In this document: one piece after another, positions 34,341-41,263 of the stretch
Numbering within the stretch: the stretch's first letter is position 1
Layout: every line of letters begins with the position of its first letter
Assembly: GCA_016787645.1 (NCBI GenBank)
Contig: JAEUUF010000015.1
Span: 248,001 to 312,000 of the forward strand
Reading direction: 5' to 3'
Length of the DNA stretch: 64,000 nt
Source of the DNA: Cyclobacteriaceae bacterium
GTDB lineage: Bacteria; Bacteroidota; Bacteroidia; Cytophagales; Cyclobacteriaceae
The notes under the pieces: model-generated
The model's input: only the letters and a program-made list of their open reading frames with translations
The model's database searches: none
What the model was told of the DNA's origin: nothing
Program-made: the position numbers and the translations under genes

Positions 34341-34781
34341 CTACTTACCGGCCTTCAACGCGGGCCAGTTCAGGTCCGCTTTTTCGATGTATCCTTTTTG
34401 ATCCTGCATCCAGCGGGCCTTCACGTCCTGGTTGTAGTTGAAGTAGAGTTTGCCGTCGACGATGGTCCACGTATCGGCCTGGGTGGGCGAGAGGTGGCCG
34501 TCGGCGGTACCGTACGCGCAATACCCGCCGTACTGGGGCGCGTACTGCTCCGGGTTGGCCTTGAAGGCTTCCAGGTTCTCAGCCGAGCTGAAGCACCACG
34601 TGGCCCCGTTCCATTCCGTGCTAAAATTCTTATCGCCTTTCACCGGCTTGCCTTCCTTGAAGAAACCAACCGCGTCATACCCGTCAATGGCGCCGTTGTC
34701 AGTGGTGTACACGGTGGAGGTCTTGGTGGTGCACGCGGCGACCAGCGAGACGAGGAGGAGGGAGAGGAGGAGTTTGTGCAT
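34341..34781 (-). CDS. YHS-domain lipoprotein
   Basis: ATG 34781 gives a lipoprotein signal (MHKLLLSLLLVSLVAACTTK, Cys17). The 146-residue protein carries a YHS domain (NGAIDGYDAVGFFKEGKPVK, TWCFSSAENLEAFKANPEQY, YGGYCAYG), a small metal-binding fold common in periplasmic lipoproteins of Bacteroidota. Its function is not known; copper or heavy-metal handling is the usual guess. The gene marks the left end of the cassette-like region. Confidence 0.88.
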   Translation of the reverse strand: MHKLLLSLLLVSLVAACTTKTSTVYTTDNGAIDGYDAVGFFKEGKPVKGDKNFSTEWNGATWCFSSAENLEAFKANPEQYAPQYGGYCAYGTADGHLSPTQADTWTIVDGKLYFNYNQDVKARWMQDQKGYIEKADLNWPALKAGK

Positions 34782-34838
34782 GGGGGGTTGGGAGGTTATG
34801 TCAAATAAATAGAACACAGGGCATTATGCGCATCAATT

Positions 34839-34857
34839 GTTGGCGGTAGTTTTTGCA
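34839..34857. repeat. left inverted repeat of cassette-like unit 1
   Basis: GTTGGCGGTAGTTTTTGCA lies three bases before the stop codon of the 34861-35739 gene. Its reverse complement recurs at 35740-35758 with one mismatch (18 of 19), exactly abutting that gene's start codon. Confidence 0.85.
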
Positions 34858-34860
34858 TCA

Positions 34861-35739
34861 CTACTTTCCTTTTTTAATCCGTCTTTGCTCTTTCATGGCA
34901 AACTTAATGTCCATGTCATAAATTCGGTGAAGAAGGAAGTCAAATTCGAGGCTTAACCGAAATTGTTCTTCAATTGGTTGTCCTTTTGATTGTATGATGT
35001 CCCACGGTCCGAGGTCTTTGATTGCATTAAATACAGCATCCGCATACTCCGGCTCTGAGTCGAGCTCTGTGTTTTCAACCGTTTTTATCTTTCCGTCTGG
35101 TCCGATTGTTACAATAAAGTCTTCCCACCAGTATCTACCGTCATCTGGTAATTTCTTCCATTTGAGTTTTCTTTTTACTGTTTTGTAAATCTTAAATAAA
35201 GGGTCATAATGACTGAATCTGTCAAGTTTATTTGGGTCGTCAATGTAGTTTCTGAAATCGTCTACTTTCGTAATCTTTCCTGAATCTATTTCAACATTAT
35301 ATTCCCTTTCATAAGAAGAACCATATCCCATATGAATGTATCTTATTACTTTCCCATAAGGAGCTATCAACGTTCCGGAGTACCAATTCGCTAGGACTTT
35401 GCCTTGTACATATCTGTCACCAAACATCTTAACAAGGTTGGCGTCTTTAATTTCCAAACCGCAAGAATTGTGACAACTCCTAATTCTCACAAGAAAAAGT
35501 TGTCCGTCTTCAATTTTCCAAATCGCCTGATAACCTCTCCAACAGGCCGTGGACCCGCAACCAACAAAGTCGGGCAGATCTCTCCGTCCCGTTAGTTCGA
35601 AATAGATTTCTAAAGGATTTGTAAATAGTCTTAGTGAGTCGTTCTTGTAAATCAGAACGTCACCTACTTGTCCAGTTGCTTGACCTTGTAAGAAAGTCCC
35701 AAAGAAAATTATTACCGTAATTACGAATCTAACTTTCAT
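34861..35739 (-). CDS. secreted protein with TonB C-terminal-like domain
   Basis: The 292-residue product has a signal peptide (MKVRFVITVIIFFGTFLQGQ) and ends with a segment like the TonB C-terminal fold (WWEDFIVTIGPDGKIKTVEN, LGPWDIIQSKGQPIEEQFRL). No membrane anchor for TonB function is visible, so it is a TonB-domain relative rather than an energy transducer. ATG 35739 is used because a 19-bp inverted repeat abuts it; the in-frame ATG 6 codons earlier lies inside the repeat. The gene is AT-rich compared with its chromosomal neighbours and is the first unit of the cassette-like array. Confidence 0.6.
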   Translation of the reverse strand: MKVRFVITVIIFFGTFLQGQATGQVGDVLIYKNDSLRLFTNPLEIYFELTGRRDLPDFVGCGSTACWRGYQAIWKIEDGQLFLVRIRSCHNSCGLEIKDANLVKMFGDRYVQGKVLANWYSGTLIAPYGKVIRYIHMGYGSSYEREYNVEIDSGKITKVDDFRNYIDDPNKLDRFSHYDPLFKIYKTVKRKLKWKKLPDDGRYWWEDFIVTIGPDGKIKTVENTELDSEPEYADAVFNAIKDLGPWDIIQSKGQPIEEQFRLSLEFDFLLHRIYDMDIKFAMKEQRRIKKGK

Positions 35740-35925
35740 TGCAAAAATTACCGCCAACGACCTGTGTATGCGCCGTGCCGGGCAGTAGGAGGGCTTGCTT
35801 AAGGCGCCGGTACAAGCCTGGCAAGCCCGACCAGCTGTGCACGTTCACACTGACCGTTGGGTAGAAACGAAGTTAGGTATTTATTTCAAGAGAGAGTGCC
35901 CGGTATGCTGCATAGACACTCTTGT
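35740..35925. repeat. attC-like imperfect palindrome B
   Basis: It begins with TGCAAAAATTACCGCCAAC (35740-35758), then an imperfect palindrome to GTTGGGT (35856-35862) with a perfect inner stem GGGCTTGC (35791-35798) / GCAAGCCC (35821-35828). A trunk GAAACGAAGTTAGGTATTTATTT follows, in part shared with element E at 39858. It separates the first two genes of the array. The end boxes CCAAC/GTTGGGT resemble integron attC R boxes. Confidence 0.75.
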
Positions 35926-35952
35926 CCCGTTCGGTAATAATCAAAAAGCCAA

Positions 35953-36615
35953 TCACTTAATTTCAACCAGTACTAAATATATTTTGCCTTCTCCAACTGC
36001 TGTGAAGTAAAATGAACTCTGTGGCTCTATATACAAGTGGCCACCCTTTTTAATTTCCTTGGTCTTTTTGGTCTTCTGATCATGAACTAAGATTTGATCG
36101 CCTTCAACAAGTTGCGCAATAATGGGCCCACGTTTGCTGATAACCTTTTGATCCAATGAAGAATTGCGCAAGCCATAAGCCAATACCTTCTCATTCTCAA
36201 GCAGTACATCAACCGGCAATGGTTTGATTGGGCGGCCATTGGTGTAGGAATTCAAAATCTCCATATCCGTAACATGAAAAGGAACTGTGTCGCAATTGGT
36301 TACTCGATGAATGAGTGTATCATTTAGGAAAGAAGTGTACCATGAATCGCCGGCAACATTTTGTGCTATCGCCCAGTCCTTTCCTGCTATTTGTGCTCCT
36401 ACTGTGGTGCTGGTGAATATGAGAAAGAAAGATGGGGTAGCATGAATGTGAAACAAGGAGGTGTCGCCAGGAGCAATATGAACATCCAAAAGCCGTAGGT
36501 ATTTATTTTCGAAAACATTTTTATGCCTGGGTTCATTTCTCACCGGCACTTGAGCATTCGACATTGACGGAATCATTAATAACGCTAATAGAAAAAACCC
36601 TCTTCTGTCGTTCAT
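35953..36615 (-). CDS. secreted cupin-like protein
   Basis: The 220-residue product has a signal peptide (RGFFLLALLMIPSMSNAQ). Two cupin-type halves are suggested: one around DVHIAPGDTSLFHIHATPSF with possible His ligands, one around KGGHLYIEPQSSFYFTAVGE. It is probably a periplasmic binding or lyase-type cupin of unknown substrate. It is AT-rich and lies between palindrome B and a GTTGGCAGTTGTTTTT box at 36639. Its own flanking repeats appear eroded. Confidence 0.6.
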   Translation of the reverse strand: MNDRRGFFLLALLMIPSMSNAQVPVRNEPRHKNVFENKYLRLLDVHIAPGDTSLFHIHATPSFFLIFTSTTVGAQIAGKDWAIAQNVAGDSWYTSFLNDTLIHRVTNCDTVPFHVTDMEILNSYTNGRPIKPLPVDVLLENEKVLAYGLRNSSLDQKVISKRGPIIAQLVEGDQILVHDQKTKKTKEIKKGGHLYIEPQSSFYFTAVGEGKIYLVLVEIK

Positions 36616-36638
36616 TAGTTACATTTTCTTTATGCCTT

Positions 36639-36661
36639 GTTGGCAGTTGTTTTTCCACGCC
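36639..36661. repeat. GTTGGC boundary box in cassette array
   Basis: GTTGGCAGTTGTTTTTCCA matches the left-boundary box of unit 1 (GTTGGCGGTAGTTTTTGCA) in the same orientation. It therefore looks like the left edge of the unit carrying the 36725 and 37310 genes; a weak mirror match (GTTCGCGACAATTCTTGG on the other strand) is at about 37750-37770. Confidence 0.5.
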
Positions 36662-36724
36662 ACTCTAATTCCGACCTCCTTTTTCAGAGTCCGATCGGAT
36701 AACCAAAAAATCGCAGTTAGTTTA

Positions 36725-37219
36725 CTATCTGGTAATGCCGACTTTACCAGTATTTTTATTGTAATTAGATTCTGATAATATTTCATTACCAAGATCGTTC
36801 TTACTTTTGAAATAAAATCTTACAATTAATTCACTTTGATCATTGAAATAGATATCTCCAACCGAGTCTTCAATAAAATCAAAAGTTAACCCATTCTTTA
36901 GGTTAAGACTTATCATATATTTTGTCATTAATACAGCTCCATTTACTTGAGAATACAAATACGCTGCAGCAGGGTCAGATATTTTTCTTTTGGCAAGATT
37001 AGTTTTTAAAAAAACTGTATCAGTCAAAAACATTTTATAACTATCTGATAACTTAATCTTACTTAGAGTCTCCTTTGTAATTGAAAAATTTGCTTTTCTC
37101 GTTTGGTGTACGCCATTCTCTACTTCCGTGTAAAACATCTCATTTTCGATTTTAATGTTTTGCGAGTACGCTGAAACATTGAAAAGAATTGTGAATGTCA
37201 AAAGGATTGTTTTCTTCAT
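36725..37219 (-). CDS. secreted protein of unknown function
   Basis: The 164-residue product starts with a signal peptide (MKKTILLTFTILFNVSAYSQ) followed by a hydrophilic, strand-rich domain (SVGDIYFNDQSELIVRFYFK). No motif or family is recognised. It is strongly AT-rich and lies in the cassette-like array, 90 bp from the next gene, with which it may share one unit. Confidence 0.5.
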   Translation of the reverse strand: MKKTILLTFTILFNVSAYSQNIKIENEMFYTEVENGVHQTRKANFSITKETLSKIKLSDSYKMFLTDTVFLKTNLAKRKISDPAAAYLYSQVNGAVLMTKYMISLNLKNGLTFDFIEDSVGDIYFNDQSELIVRFYFKSKNDLGNEILSESNYNKNTGKVGITR

Positions 37220-37309
37220 GAATCTATTCTGTTTATTAAATTCTGCTTTGAACTTCCCACGTACATTGGCTTTGTTAGACCAAATAATGTTTAGTATGAA
37301 TTATTTATT

Positions 37310-37726
37310 CTAATTTAAGGTATTTAACAAATAGAAAACTCCATCAATTTCCTTTTGGTATGTTTCAATTGGAGGAGTAGGGAAAATAATATCCGGAAGC
37401 GGCAATTGGTTTTTGGCATATGCATATGCCTCGTTCAGACCTGAGATAGCATCCTTATAACATTCATAGATGCTTTCTCTCGCTTTAATTTTATTCACGG
37501 GTATTTCATAAACTGACACTGCAGTAAGAACTTCATGCTCTTTTCTATCATAAAATTCGACAAGGATAAACTTCTTAGTAATTATCAGTTTCAGCTTGTT
37601 GTTGACAATAAATGGAGGTTCAGTTTTGAAATCAATCTTTGACTCGCCGGGGCCTGTGATAGCTGGAAAATCCAAGGCAGATAAATCATATTTTGTTCTG
37701 TATTGTCTTGCATTCATATCATACAA
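37310..37726 (-). CDS. protein of unknown function
   Basis: The 138-residue soluble protein has no signal peptide. It shows strands (LKLIITKKFILVEFYDRKEH) followed by a helix (SIYECYKDAISGLNEAYAYA). I recognise no family. A second in-frame ATG three codons in is an alternative start. Upstream is palindrome C. AT-rich like the rest of the array. Confidence 0.45.
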   Translation of the reverse strand: MYDMNARQYRTKYDLSALDFPAITGPGESKIDFKTEPPFIVNNKLKLIITKKFILVEFYDRKEHEVLTAVSVYEIPVNKIKARESIYECYKDAISGLNEAYAYAKNQLPLPDIIFPTPPIETYQKEIDGVFYLLNTLN

Positions 37727-37765
37727 TTTTTTTAAGATTTTCAGGAGTCGTGGCCAAGAATTGTC

Positions 37766-37860
37766 GCGAACGACCTGTATATGAGGCGTGCCAGGTCTAG
37801 GAGGCTTGTTAAAAACGCAGGAACAAGCCCGACTGGTGCGCGCTATCCCTGGTGTTGGCA
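37766..37860. repeat. attC-like imperfect palindrome C
   Basis: It runs from GCGAACGACCTGTATATG to GTTGGCA (37854-37860), with a perfect inner stem GGCTTGTT (37803-37810) / AACAAGCC (37822-37829). The left arm (CGACCTGT-TATG, GCGTGCC, TAGGAGG, CTTG) is the same as in palindrome B, so the two are relatives and not chance hairpins. Confidence 0.75.
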
Positions 37861-37867
37861 GTCGTGC

Positions 37868-38554
37868 TCAGACTCTACTTTTGAATTCATCCCGAGTCCA
37901 TTCATCTCTCAATTTTTGTGTATAGACGTTCTTCTCAAAGCGAATACCACTCTCTATTCGCCGCAATAGTGACACTGAACCGGCAATACTGTTTGTATAT
38001 TCAAATGCAACCGTAGAGTCTAAATACTTCGCAGAAATGCTGTTATACAAAGCATGTATCCTTCGCAGAATGCTTTCCAACTTGTCCCTCGTTGCTGGTT
38101 TTAGAGGTTCTGCACTTTGAGGATTTGAAACCAATTCATAATCCATATGTGCTATCCATCTGTTTCTCCAGTCTCGACAGAATTCTGATTCCTTAAGAAT
38201 CTCCTTAAGGGAAGCTTCAATTTTGATCCTAAACTCATTATCCGCAACTAATGGGCAAATGGATTTTAAGGTGATGTTCTTTTTTCCGTTGGTCGTTGGG
38301 GGGTCAGTAATTCTTGCAACCCCAAGCAGCAAATTATCCCATAGAACTCTCTGAACAATATAGAAAAACAAGGAGGCAGCTTCATTCATTAGATCTATAC
38401 GTGATTCCTTTGATCCGTATAATTCTTTGAACTCTGTCCATTTGTAGGTGATCCAGACAATTTCATTGTAAAGTGAATAGAGTAGAGAACCGAACTCTGG
38501 TCCAAGTTTGCGAATCATTTCTGCCTTTACCTCTTCTGTTGTTTGTGTCGCCAT
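37868..38554 (-). CDS. HEPN/AbiU2-like protein
   Basis: The 228-residue helical protein resembles AbiU2-type HEPN proteins: an N-terminal helical bundle (LYNEIVWITYKWTEFKELYG), then a segment EFCRDWRNRWIAHMDYEL that fits the HEPN RNase motif Rx4-6H. HEPN proteins are often RNA-cleaving toxins or abortive-infection effectors. No partner gene is adjacent. The gene is bracketed by matching inverted repeats (GTTGGCAGTCGTGCTCAGA at 37854, mirrored at 38561-38579, 16 of 19 bases), and its stop codon lies inside the left one. Confidence 0.6.
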   Translation of the reverse strand: MATQTTEEVKAEMIRKLGPEFGSLLYSLYNEIVWITYKWTEFKELYGSKESRIDLMNEAASLFFYIVQRVLWDNLLLGVARITDPPTTNGKKNITLKSICPLVADNEFRIKIEASLKEILKESEFCRDWRNRWIAHMDYELVSNPQSAEPLKPATRDKLESILRRIHALYNSISAKYLDSTVAFEYTNSIAGSVSLLRRIESGIRFEKNVYTQKLRDEWTRDEFKSRV

Positions 38555-38560
38555 CTTGAT

Positions 38561-38579
38561 TCAGAGCATGACTGCTAAC
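38561..38579. repeat. right inverted repeat of the AbiU2-like unit
   Basis: TCAGAGCATGACTGCTAAC is the mirror of GTTGGCAGTCGTGCTCAGA at 37854-37872 (16 of 19). It lies 6 nt upstream of the gene's start codon. From 38580 to 38782 nothing coding is seen; the stretch looks like a decayed intercassette segment. Confidence 0.7.
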
Positions 38580-38782
38580 GTTGTATATACTGCCATAATG
38601 CAGCATATGTCCTTATGATCAGGGTTCAAAAAGCCAACCAAGAGGGCTGATAACACTGAAAATTCATGAACCGTTGTTTGCTTGAAACCCAGCGTCGTTT
38701 AGTCGCTCTCGTTCCCCATCAGAACCAATATAGTTACTTTTTGATTGAAGTCCGATGAGCTTATGCCATCGCATTATGTCCG

Positions 38783-38899
38783 CCTACTGCCTCCACCGAT
38801 ACAACTCCGCCTCCGCCGCAATAAACCCAAACGCGCAAAGTGCTTGCCGGTGCCCACTTGCTCAAAGATCGGCTTCGCCTTCGCGGAGTCGCCGTTGTA
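38783..38899 (-). pseudogene. 3'-terminal fragment of a TPR lipoprotein gene
   Basis: These 117 bases are about 90 percent identical by eye to 40333-40450, the last 38 codons plus stop of the TPR lipoprotein gene. One base is missing in the copy (ACGCGCAAAG against ACGCGCCAAAG), so it is frameshifted. The similarity stops abruptly after GCCGTTGTA. It is a remnant, not a gene. Confidence 0.85.
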
Positions 38900-38914
38900 A
38901 TAGGTAATAGAGGC

Positions 38915-39772
38915 CTACACCGCCACTTCGCTTTTTTTGACTTTGGTTACTATTCCTACACCCAACCAATACAATAAAAGAAAGGGTATTCCTGGAATAA
39001 AGAATAGAAATAGAATTTCAAAGCCCTTCGGAATGTTCATTTGAGTAATATAAATGACAATGGCTGAGGCAAGGCCAACTAAACTAAATAGGATCGTCAA
39101 TATCGGACTCCAGAGTTTGATATGTTGTAAGCGGTATAGTTGTATGGAGAGCCATATCACTAATGAGAAATGAATGAGCCGTCCCACTGCTACAATAGTA
39201 ATGACAGTCAGGTTGTCATAAGATTTGCCGAATTCTTCTGCATGGTTTCCATGGTCAATCCATTCTTTTAATGCCTCTGGGTACAAATAGTGATGCGTGA
39301 ACTCCCAAATAGATTCCACGAAAGCAAGAATAAAAAGCAAGGTCATTATCAACCTCGCCACATTTTTTATTTCCAATGAATTCCTCTTCAATAAAACCAG
39401 GGGGAAGGTTCCAAAAAGTAGCGCGGCCAGGAAGAGAAAAATATACCGTAAATGTTCACGTTCGGGATGCTCAAGCATTTTTATACTGAGGTCAGGCGCT
39501 GCGGCTAAACCGGTTATTCCGATAATAGGACAAATCAGTAGAAAAAGTAATAGTCCGCTAACTAATAAACTGCCGAATGACTGTTTGTAATACTTTGAAA
39601 CGGCCAAGGCAACAACAACAAAAACCAATGAAATAGCCGTCCAAATTATTACATAAGTCTTAAAGCTGTTCGAGTCAACATAAGGCGAATATTGGCCAAT
39701 CGGAATTCCAACCAAAAAGGGGAGTATGACTAAAATGAGAGTCGTAAGAGTTAGCAATATTTTCTTTGTCAT
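38915..39772 (-). CDS. multispanning membrane protein of unknown function
   Basis: The 285-residue protein has about eight hydrophobic segments (for example ILLTLTTLILVILPFLVGIP and FLLLYWLGVGIVTKVKK) and no soluble domain. No family is recognised. The loop ESIWEFTHHYLYPEALKEWI contains His residues. Its right flank carries the box GTTGGCAGTGATTTC (mirror) in element E, but its left flank has been replaced by the TPR-gene fragment, so the unit is probably truncated on that side. Confidence 0.5.
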   Translation of the reverse strand: MTKKILLTLTTLILVILPFLVGIPIGQYSPYVDSNSFKTYVIIWTAISLVFVVVALAVSKYYKQSFGSLLVSGLLLFLLICPIIGITGLAAAPDLSIKMLEHPEREHLRYIFLFLAALLFGTFPLVLLKRNSLEIKNVARLIMTLLFILAFVESIWEFTHHYLYPEALKEWIDHGNHAEEFGKSYDNLTVITIVAVGRLIHFSLVIWLSIQLYRLQHIKLWSPILTILFSLVGLASAIVIYITQMNIPKGFEILFLFFIPGIPFLLLYWLGVGIVTKVKKSEVAV

Positions 39773-39822
39773 TTTAAGTTGTTCGATGTCCTGAGTTAAT
39801 TATGGGGTGTTACTGAAATCAC

Positions 39823-39934
39823 TGCCAACGATCAGTGTATGCACACTGATCATCGAGTCGAAACGAAGTTAACTATTTATTTGACGAGCGAATTCCAGGT
39901 ATGATGTCATCTAGAATGTTGGCGGTAGTGCATT
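39823..39934. repeat. attC-like element E (short-stem form)
   Basis: It has TGCCAAC at the left, a perfect hairpin GATCAGTGT-ATGC-ACACTGATC (39830-39851), a trunk GAAACGAAGTTAACTATTT (39859 onward) shared with element B, and GTTGGCGGTAGTGC at the right (39918-39931). Compared with B, the inner arm of about 70 bases is missing. Confidence 0.75.
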
Positions 39935-39946
39935 CCGATGAATAGG

Positions 39947-40249
39947 TTACCAAACAAGTGGCCAATTATCCTTTTCAAGATGTAGCGCTATACCTACATA
40001 GATCAAGTAACCAGTGAGAATTGTCAGAGTTATGAAGCGAGTCTTGTTGGCCTTATAGATTCTGCAAACAATTGCGTAGACCAAACTAGAAAAGGCTGTA
40101 AGGATTGGTGGCCAGAATAGATTTATTAAGCCCCCAAGCTCATAATGGCTCATATCAACTGTAGTAGCCAGCGACCAACAAATAAATCCTGCCAATAGGA
40201 TAATCATTATTCCTGTACTAATACTCGGGGTATTCTCTCTAGATGTCAC
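39947..40249 (-). CDS. small membrane protein of unknown function
   Basis: The 100-residue protein (GTG start) has three hydrophobic segments (IMIILLAGFICWSLATTVDM, LFWPPILTAFSSLVYAIVCR, LTILTGYLIYVGIALHL). No family is recognised. It is bracketed by inverted repeats ATGTTGGCGGTAGTGC at 39916 and its mirror at 40271-40286 (15 of 16), so it is a complete cassette-like unit. Confidence 0.5.
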   Translation of the reverse strand: MTSRENTPSISTGIMIILLAGFICWSLATTVDMSHYELGGLINLFWPPILTAFSSLVYAIVCRIYKANKTRFITLTILTGYLIYVGIALHLEKDNWPLVW

Positions 40250-40270
40250 AAATATTCAGTTATTTGATTA

Positions 40271-40286
40271 GCATTACCGCCAACAT
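40271..40286. repeat. right inverted repeat of the last cassette-like unit
   Basis: GCATTACCGCCAACAT mirrors ATGTTGGCGGTAGTGC at 39916-39931 with one mismatch. It is the right edge of the array; the TPR lipoprotein gene ends 48 nt further on. Confidence 0.7.
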
Positions 40287-40333
40287 CTTTATGTCCAGCG
40301 CATCAAATCTCGTAACTCGGCATTGATTATTTC

Positions 40334-41263
40334 CTACTCCCTCCACCGATACAACTCCGCCTCCGCCGCAATAAAACCAAACGCGCCAAAGTGCTTTCCG
40401 GCAACCACTTCCTCAAAGATCGCCTTCGCCTTCGCGGAGTCGCCGTTGTACAGATACCAGTTGCCCACACCGTACCCCTGCGTGGCGAGGGATAAGTCGC
40501 GCTGCTCGGGGTCGGCGTCAGCGACGTGAAGAACCGAGTCGGGAGATAGTTTGCCCTGGTACATCAGGCAGCGCTTGTAATATGAGTCGTTCTCGATGAT
40601 CTTCATGCCCTCGTGCACGTTGCCCACGATAGACTGCGCCAGCTCGGTCTTGCCCTGTCGCCGGTAAGTCATGTACATCCAGTCAACACAAGCCACCATC
40701 AAATCATCGTTGTCGCAGGTCTTCAGGCATTCAATATAAGCCTGCTCCGCCTTCGCGAAGTCGCCCTTGAGGTAGTAGGCGAGCGCAAGGTGATAGCGGA
40801 TGTTGAACTGCAGCGTGGAGAGCGGTGTGTTGATCGCGTTGGGAATACCATCGGGTTCGATTTCAAGCGGAAAGCCAGCTGCCAACTGGTGCGCCTGCTC
40901 GAGGTCATCGATGGCGCGGTCAAACAGCCGCATGGAAATGTAACGATGTCCGCGGTGGCGATACAACTTGGCGCTCTTCGGGAATTTCTGGATGCCCTCC
41001 GTCAGGACATCCACGGCTTCCTGGTAACGCGAGAGATAACCGAGGCGTCGCCCGTACCAGATGTAGTTCTCTTCCGAAGGATCTGCCTCCCAGTTCGCTT
41101 TGGCAACGCGCAGGTTGCTGTCCAGCCGCGCCTGCACTTTGGCGGAACGGCTCGGCTCATAATAGGCTTTTCCCAGCAGGGAAATCACCACCGGGCTTTT
41201 CTTCTGCTCACCTGTCCCGCAGGCGGTGACAACTAACAAGAGGGCGAAGACCAGTCGATGCAT
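40334..41263 (-). CDS. TPR lipoprotein
   Basis: The 309-residue product has a lipoprotein signal (MHRLVFALLLVVTACGTGEQ, Cys15) and TPR-like helices (YIWYGRRLGYLSRYQEAVDV, RYHLALAYYLKGDFAKAEQA). It is 8 nt downstream of the amidohydrolase gene and surely co-transcribed with it, so it may assist that enzyme in the periplasm. Its 3' end is where the cassette-like array starts, and a decayed copy of that end lies at 38783-38899. Confidence 0.82.
   Translation of the reverse strand: MHRLVFALLLVVTACGTGEQKKSPVVISLLGKAYYEPSRSAKVQARLDSNLRVAKANWEADPSEENYIWYGRRLGYLSRYQEAVDVLTEGIQKFPKSAKLYRHRGHRYISMRLFDRAIDDLEQAHQLAAGFPLEIEPDGIPNAINTPLSTLQFNIRYHLALAYYLKGDFAKAEQAYIECLKTCDNDDLMVACVDWMYMTYRRQGKTELAQSIVGNVHEGMKIIENDSYYKRCLMYQGKLSPDSVLHVADADPEQRDLSLATQGYGVGNWYLYNGDSAKAKAIFEEVVAGKHFGAFGFIAAEAELYRWRE

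What the first reader, a model, noticed from the sequence alone, without database searches (positions are those of the whole stretch)
34839..40286. Integron-like gene-cassette array with attC-like palindromes but no visible integrase
Seen: seven leftward, AT-rich, mostly unknown single genes separated by related imperfect palindromes (elements B 35740, C 37766, E 39823) with CCAAC/GTTGG end boxes, in a region of clearly different base composition from the flanks. Established: integron arrays have single promoterless genes separated by attC sites with RYYYAAC/GTTRRRY ends. GTTGGGT at 35856 fits GTTRRRY; the left boxes fit less well. Inference: a gene-capture array of a Bacteroidota type, possibly mobilised by an enzyme encoded elsewhere.
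Basis: partly seen in the sequence, partly recalled or inferred. Interest (0 to 1): 0.78.

Follow-up and report, generated by a model that had tools for sequence, protein, structure and literature searches.

The report
Second kind of bacterial gene-capture array
The stretch is a worn outpost of a gene-collecting system that works like an integron but uses a different recombining enzyme and differently built recombination sites, and the enzyme's relatives look common in Bacteroidota.

Summary
In detail: 34839-40286 is an AT-rich, leftward array of seven mostly unknown genes with related palindromes. The inference holds too, but this is not an ordinary integron. On contig C24 of the same genome a 380-aa tyrosine recombinase is followed by cassettes with the same palindromes (76-91% identity), so the window array is a CALIN-like satellite; three informative relatives lack it. 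The enzyme lacks the ~40-aa IntI domain (K-to-HxxR spacing about 60, against 102 in 18 of 18 IntI). Each cassette starts GTT+7 nt and ends with the reverse complement, followed by a fixed mismatch at nt 11 (start A, reverse-complemented end G) and resumed pairing. This rule holds in 114 of 147 pairs downstream of the enzyme, 2 of 54 in IntI loci, 1 of 17 in shuffled sequence, 12 of 13 in held-out loci, and on two named plasmids. Enzyme homologs at E<1e-60 occur in about 202 of 395 Bacteroidia genomes, true IntI in 1 of 395. About half of the homologs tested had no array found. Recombination is inferred, not shown; the structure prediction did not return; the HARP-like N-terminal domain rests on weak matches; only open-access papers were searched.

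The parts
39918..40284 (-). cassette A (first, rightmost): gene 39947-40249, 100 aa membrane protein; start GTTGGCGGTA|A, end with G at nt 11 of its reverse complement
   Evidence: protein 36% identical over 81 aa to cassette-1 protein of contig C24 (E 1e-11)
39827..39920 (-). attC-like site A
   Evidence: matched by the C24 site in the own-genome search
38915..39829 (-). cassette B: start at 39829, gene 38915-39772 (285 aa membrane protein); 3' end and attC not recognisable
38783..38899 (-). partial copy of the 3' end of the flanking TPR gene (40333-40450), 84-95% identical, inside the array
   Evidence: D1, D4
38577..38640 (-). half of an attC-like site preceding cassette C
   Evidence: by eye
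37854..38579 (-). cassette C: gene 37868-38554, HEPN AbiU2-like protein
   Evidence: (PF18734, 73.9 bits)
37769..37856 (-). attC-like site C
36639..37771 (-). cassette D region: start at 37771; genes 37310-37726 and 36725-37219; an unpaired cassette end at 36639
35953..36615 (-). gene E, 220 aa, no Pfam or PADLOC hit
35756..35930 (-). attC-like site E (left box degenerate), closest match of the window to the C24 sites
   Evidence: (76% over 185 nt, E 9e-25)
34839..35758 (-). cassette F (last): gene 34861-35757, no Pfam or PADLOC hit; 19-nt start/end complementarity with the nt-11 mismatch
   Evidence: (I9)
34800..34841 (-). truncated attC-like site at the left end of the array
   Evidence: by eye
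34341..34817 (-). left flank: YHS-domain gene; next to the TPR gene without an array in two relatives
40334..41263 (-). right flank: TPR gene

Best explanation
34839-40286 is a decayed satellite array (CALIN-like) of an integron-like gene-capture system whose integrase is on contig C24 of the same genome. Shown: single-gene cassettes in one orientation, joined by attC-like hairpins, behind a tyrosine recombinase with a complete catalytic set; cassettes bounded at GTT by a self-complementary 16-nt box with a fixed mismatch; insertion absent from three relatives. Inferred: the integrase folds out the bottom strand of attC, cuts at the GTT/AAC box, releases cassettes as circles (in which the two halves of the box pair) and inserts them into a site a few dozen nt behind its own gene, now and then at secondary sites such as this one. 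The enzyme does this without the IntI additional domain; a HARP-like N-terminal domain may help it bind folded single-stranded DNA (speculative, and some array enzymes lack it).
For: Same palindrome family on C24 behind the recombinase. Relatives of the enzyme are followed by arrays: the A/G rule holds in 114 of 147 start/end pairs downstream, 2 of 29 upstream, 1 of 17 in shuffles, 2 of 54 in 18 canonical IntI loci, 12 of 13 in 29 held-out loci, 6 and 3 cassettes on two named plasmids with 0 upstream and 0 on the opposite strand. 107 of 114 cassettes have their longest ORF on the integrase strand. Complementarity lies within a cassette, not across the hairpin, as exchange at GTT predicts. Three repeats of at least 95% identity end at or within 2 nt of GTT and one starts within 3 nt of it. 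Catalytic R, K, H, R, H, Y invariant in 18 sequences. Bottom-strand wobbles 76 against 19 top-strand in L arms. Empty site in three relatives.
Against: No recombination was observed. Of 56 loci with at least 1.5 kb downstream, 27 gave no A/G pair, and 11 of 22 held-out loci gave none within 1.5 kb, so some homologs may do something else; IS-type and plasmid recombinases score in the same range. One 526-bp repeat of 95% does not end at GTT and a 2302-bp one may be an IS. The window sites fold only weakly better than shuffles. The C24 link rests on binning plus sequence similarity. The window array's integration mechanism (off-target insertion or loss of its own integrase) is not resolved.
Confidence: 0.8

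Rival explanations
1. An ordinary integron or CALIN with a merely divergent IntI and ordinary attC sites.
For: IntI4 of Vibrio is the best solved-structure match (129.5 bits, XerA 125.7); the site anatomy and GTT boundary are the same; the C-terminal SPL motif occurs in 56 of 99 of the family, 8 of 18 IntI and 0 of 15 Xer. PMC8138268 (passages) says the insertion is not fully conserved in its integron-like subgroup.
Against: TIGR02249 197.5 bits against a cut-off of 265; spacing 58-67 in 93 of 94 measured family members against 102 in 18 of 18 IntI; IntI lies on one side of a branch with support 100; different start/end complementarity profile.
Confidence: 0.1
2. Static intergenic palindromes (REP/BIME, MITE or terminators) in a genomic island, not recombination sites.
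For: The window array is decayed and three of the sites fold only modestly; genomic islands often hold AT-rich unknown genes.
Against: Complementarity is within each cassette and close to the background across the hairpin; the polarity of the nt-11 mismatch and the strand of the genes follow the integrase; linkage to one enzyme family recurs in many genera.
Confidence: 0.05
3. The window array is a relic of a second complete integron at this site that lost its own integrase, rather than off-target insertion by the C24 enzyme.
For: Half sites at both ends, a lost cassette end and a partial copy of the flanking TPR gene inside the array point to rearrangement.
Against: No integrase remnant was recognised in the ORF list of 30-45 kb; the flanks are an ordinary gene order in relatives.
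Confidence: 0.3

Closest known systems
Chromosomal integron (IntI, attI, attC)
   Same: tyrosine recombinase next to an array of single co-oriented genes; attC-like hairpins with R and L arms and an unpaired spacer; GTT/AAC boundary; species-specific site families; bottom strand favoured by base pairing
   Different: enzyme lacks the IntI additional domain; start/end complementarity runs 10 nt, a fixed mismatch, then about 4 nt more, against 10-11 nt and stop in the canonical loci examined; in the Bacteroidia loci examined the array lies behind the integrase gene on the same strand
CALIN (cluster of attC sites lacking an integron integrase)
   Same: attC-like sites at 2-kb spacing without an integrase in the window
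   Different: the cognate enzyme elsewhere in the genome is not IntI; whether IntegronFinder's attC model would call these sites was not testable here
Treponema-type integron with intI transcribed towards the cassettes
   Same: integrase and cassettes on the same strand (PMC3607928, passages)
   Different: Treponema has IntI (from the paper; not tested here)
XerA/XerC/XerD and the NCBI model NF040815 'site-specific tyrosine recombinase/integron integrase'
   Same: compact catalytic domain without the additional domain; NF040815 is the best model, 214.4 bits against a cut-off of 220
   Different: K-to-HxxR spacing of about 60 against 66-68 in Xer; Xer proteins form their own side of the tree (support 93); an N-terminal domain of about 100 aa in many members; linked to cassette arrays

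Membership tests
integron | integrase with the IntI-specific additional domain near patch III | tested here: not met
   profile positions 180-239 of TIGR02249 unmatched; spacing 58-67 in 93 of 94 measured relatives against 102 in 18 of 18 IntI
integron | array of single-gene cassettes next to the integrase gene | tested here: met
   C24 array; 23 of 56 loci with at least 1.5 kb downstream have two or more A/G cassettes
integron | attC sites: R and L arms, unpaired central spacer, variable terminal structure | tested here: met
   59 sites in 19 loci extracted and examples folded; 9 of 16 consensus pairs with changes on both sides in nine Rufibacter sites
integron | R boxes RYYYAAC / GTTRRRY | tested here: inconclusive
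   GTT and AAC were required by the search; the next letters deviate often (nt 5 is T in 29 of 65), but so they do in the canonical loci (T in 37 of 61)
integron | attI insertion site beside the integrase gene | tested here: inconclusive
   first cassette often starts 39-163 nt behind the matched integrase; no attI sequence was defined
integron | cassette excision and insertion by the integrase | not testable with these tools
   no experiment; only sequence traces
CALIN | at least two attC sites less than 4 kb apart without an integrase gene nearby | tested here: met
   sites at 35.8, 37.8 and 39.9 kb; no integrase among the ORFs of 30-45 kb; not tested with the IntegronFinder model
MITE or REP element | palindromic unit complementary across itself, dispersed without a gene | tested here: not met
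   box complementarity is within the cassette, across the gene, and near background across the hairpin
HARP domain (N-terminus of the integrase) | Pfam gathering score or solved-structure similarity | tested here: inconclusive

The most novel reading that the evidence does not exclude
There is a second, separate lineage of integron-like gene capture, built on a tyrosine recombinase without the IntI additional domain and on attC sites with a longer, mismatch-marked R arm. It takes the place of IntI integrons in the class Bacteroidia and reaches Bacillota and possibly Patescibacteria, either as an independent invention or as the state before the additional domain arose.
Probability: 0.6. Interest if true: 0.92.

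Novelty: new variant of a known kind. Interest (0 to 1): 0.82.

Why it matters
Work on integrons treats the additional domain of IntI as the feature that lets the enzyme handle folded single-stranded sites (passages of PMC4792948, and PMC9668308), and surveys have selected genes by that domain (PMC2426708, passages). A widespread cassette system without it would make the question 'what is needed to recombine a folded strand?' directly testable, would explain why class Bacteroidia looked nearly integron-free, and would open a large store of unknown cassette genes, some of them on plasmids.

Tried and rejected
Exact 10-mer search as a marker: too weak (25 against 13 for the reversed pattern; unrelated contexts). 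Rfam: no hit in 34-41 kb up to E 0.5. DNA similarity of attC sites across species: with the own-genome sites only one of 20 relative loci gave hits, so species-specific repeats and the structure rule were used instead. The 'opposite strand' column is not a control, because that rule is strand-symmetric; the shuffles there are. Tree: quick method, unrooted, 128 rows after dropping five rows named in the script, two without the motif and exact duplicates; it does not tell whether the family is nearer IntI or Xer, and one IntI row is drawn next to a long-branch IS recombinase. Spacing: the pattern found 94 of 101 family rows, 18 of 18 IntI and 9 Xer rows; one family value of 182 (L127) was not explained. 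PADLOC: no hit for seven window cassette proteins. Known overlaps in the locus set: L080 and L096 are the same contig, and L077 and L078 are two loci of one genome; held-out loci were not checked for species shared.

No paper was read whole. No listing or passage described this system; subscription journals and bioRxiv are not in the library.
Full report
What is there. The window lies in a 4.02-Mb, 28-contig genome. Between a YHS-domain gene and a TPR gene sits 5.4 kb of DNA at 36-43% GC with seven leftward ORFs. Three palindromic elements align with each other. Read on the gene strand, three cassettes are recognisable: 40284-39918, 38579-37854 and 35758-34839. Each starts with GTT and ends with the reverse complement of its own start. 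One cassette encodes an AbiU2-like HEPN protein; of the other six genes one has sub-threshold Pfam matches and five have none.

The enzyme. No integrase stood out among the ORFs of 30-45 kb. A search of the genome with the integron-integrase model gave a 380-aa tyrosine recombinase on contig C24 as best hit, below the model's cut-off and with positions 180-239 unmatched. Directly behind it, on the same strand, are six cassettes whose sites match the window's (76-91% identity over 68-185 nt for the main hits). The site family occurs at 18 places: C24 six, C14 five, C15 three, window two, C25 one, C22 one. The end of C24 and the reversed end of C14 share 92 nt inside a site, so the main array probably continues from C24 into C14. 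A first-cassette protein of C24 and cassette A of the window are homologous (36% over 81 aa).

Empty site. Of 18 relatives of the genus fetched around the TPR gene, three keep an informative neighbour: YHS next to TPR in two (about 72 and 84 nt apart) and the multihaem gene next to TPR in one (about 59 nt), all without an array; in the other 15 the next gene differs.

A family of arrays. Relatives of the enzyme were taken from the genus and order and from named genomes: 101 loci. Behind many of them lie repeated non-coding elements, each species with its own family. A chained-cassette caller gave up to 12 cassettes per locus, against means of at most 0.7 in block shuffles; upstream controls were mostly zero, with 2-4 in six loci. 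Hosts of clear arrays include Flavobacterium enshiense, Rufibacter, Arundinibacter roseus and Saccharibacillus kuerlensis, a member of Bacillota.

The rule. Selecting only on an exact match of the first 10 nt plus chaining, 65 cassettes from 19 loci show identity of start and reverse-complemented end of 6% at nt 11 (A against G in 53 of 65), then 88, 80, 69 and 51% at nt 12-15. Sixty-one cassettes from 11 of 18 canonical IntI loci of the same phylum show 75% at nt 11, 41% at nt 12, then background. In all downstream DNA 114 of 147 pairs have A/G at nt 11; upstream 2 of 29, of which 11 have the mirror form G/A; shuffled 1 of 17; canonical 2 of 54. In 29 loci not used to find the rule 12 of 13 downstream pairs obey it, with 2 pairs upstream, one of them A/G. 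On Rufibacter tibetensis plasmid 1 and a Chryseobacterium plasmid a slightly relaxed rule found 6 and 3 cassettes behind the integrase, none upstream, none on the other strand. The mirror-form pairs upstream belong mainly to L156 (Bacillota), L164 and L165 (Patescibacteria) and L138, where the array seems to diverge from the integrase as in classical integrons.

What the rule means. Start and end of one cassette pair with each other, whereas across the hairpin, between neighbours, identity at nt 4-10 is 28-60%. That is expected if cassettes are exchanged at GTT and carry their box with them. The nt-11 pair is A-C on the top strand and T-G, a wobble, on the bottom strand. L arms show the same bias: 76 bottom wobbles against 19 top wobbles in 50 sites, 17 of 19 loci one way and one the other. 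Nine Rufibacter sites share a 9-bp arm, a 1x1 mismatch and an invariant G-T pair, with changes on both sides in 9 of 16 pairs. I infer that the bottom strand is the one recombined, as in canonical integrons (PMC2727003, passages). The strand bias is shown; the reaction is not.

Mobility traces. Among repeats of at least 95% identity inside these arrays, three end at or within 2 nt of GTT (547 bp shared by two integrons of one chromosome, 576 and 693 bp) and one of 1037 bp starts within 3 nt of GTT; one of 526 bp does not fit, and one of 2302 bp may be an insertion sequence.

The enzyme family. Catalytic residues are invariant in 18 aligned members. The spacing between the K motif and HxxR is 58-67 in 93 of 94 measured members, 66-68 in 9 Xer proteins and 102 in 18 of 18 IntI. 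In a quick unrooted tree IntI lies on one side of a branch with support 100, and Xer forms its own side with 93. Many members carry about 100 extra N-terminal residues. These match HARP weakly (18 bits, cut-off 25; 5 of 33 members) and DUF5710 (9 of 33) in Pfam, and the HARP domain of SMARCAL1 tops a profile search of solved-structure sequences at E 0.0023. That HARP binds structured DNA is recalled. Since array enzymes without this extension exist (L083), it cannot be essential.

Distribution. With the family model 242 of 395 class genomes match at E 1e-50; by my count from the listing 40 of these lie between 1e-50 and 1e-60, which I take for Xer-like background, leaving 202. True IntI over the cut-off: 1 of 395 in the class, 105 of 395 in a phylum-wide sample, of which one in this class. 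These count enzymes, not arrays: of 56 loci with at least 1.5 kb behind the enzyme 29 had an A/G pair, and plasmid hits include many partial matches in other phyla.

What is known. IntegronFinder 2.0 names one complete integron in Bacteroidetes, Salinibacter ruber, and integrase-only elements earlier (PMC9024848, passages). PMC8618304 lists Bacteroidota among phyla with integrons (passages). PMC8138268 notes that the insertion is not fully conserved in its integron-like subgroup, so such enzymes may have been classified there without their arrays being noticed. Ten searches of the open-access library found no description of the system.

Verdict. The window array works, or worked, like an integron satellite, but the system fails one defining test of integron membership. 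I call it a new variant of a known kind.

Noticed in passing
window 38783-38899: A partial copy (84-95% identical) of the 3' end of the flanking TPR gene lies inside the array; it suggests recombination with another allele or a duplication during array formation.
   Followed up: partly
window 39829 and 36639: A start and an end 3.2 kb apart match the relaxed rule (1+1 mismatches) although cassette C lies between them; perhaps the lost end of cassette B, perhaps chance.
   Followed up: no
L156, L164, L165 (upstream of the integrase): Mirror-form pairs in a Bacillota and two Patescibacteria records: the same nt-11 rule with the array diverging from the integrase, as in classical integrons.
   Followed up: partly
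L035 6042-6479: A small protein with a treble-clef-like cysteine motif (sub-threshold DUF2116) is encoded divergently just upstream of the integrase; possibly a regulator.
   Followed up: no
L077 and L078: Genome G039 carries two such loci about 670 kb apart that share an identical 547-bp segment ending at GTT.
   Followed up: partly
L304 (contig C15, 623.8-626.6 kb): Another pair of sites of the same family, perhaps a second satellite array in this genome; no A/G pair was called there.
   Followed up: partly
L088 and L116: A 798-bp cassette gene stretch is 78.6% identical between a Cyclobacteriaceae-lineage genome and Flavobacterium enshiense although their sites differ, suggesting gene exchange between site families.
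   Followed up: no
L014 1642-2571 (contig C14): A 309-aa tyrosine recombinase on C14 near an unrelated copy of the 10-mer; a very long branch in the tree, probably from an insertion element.
   Followed up: no
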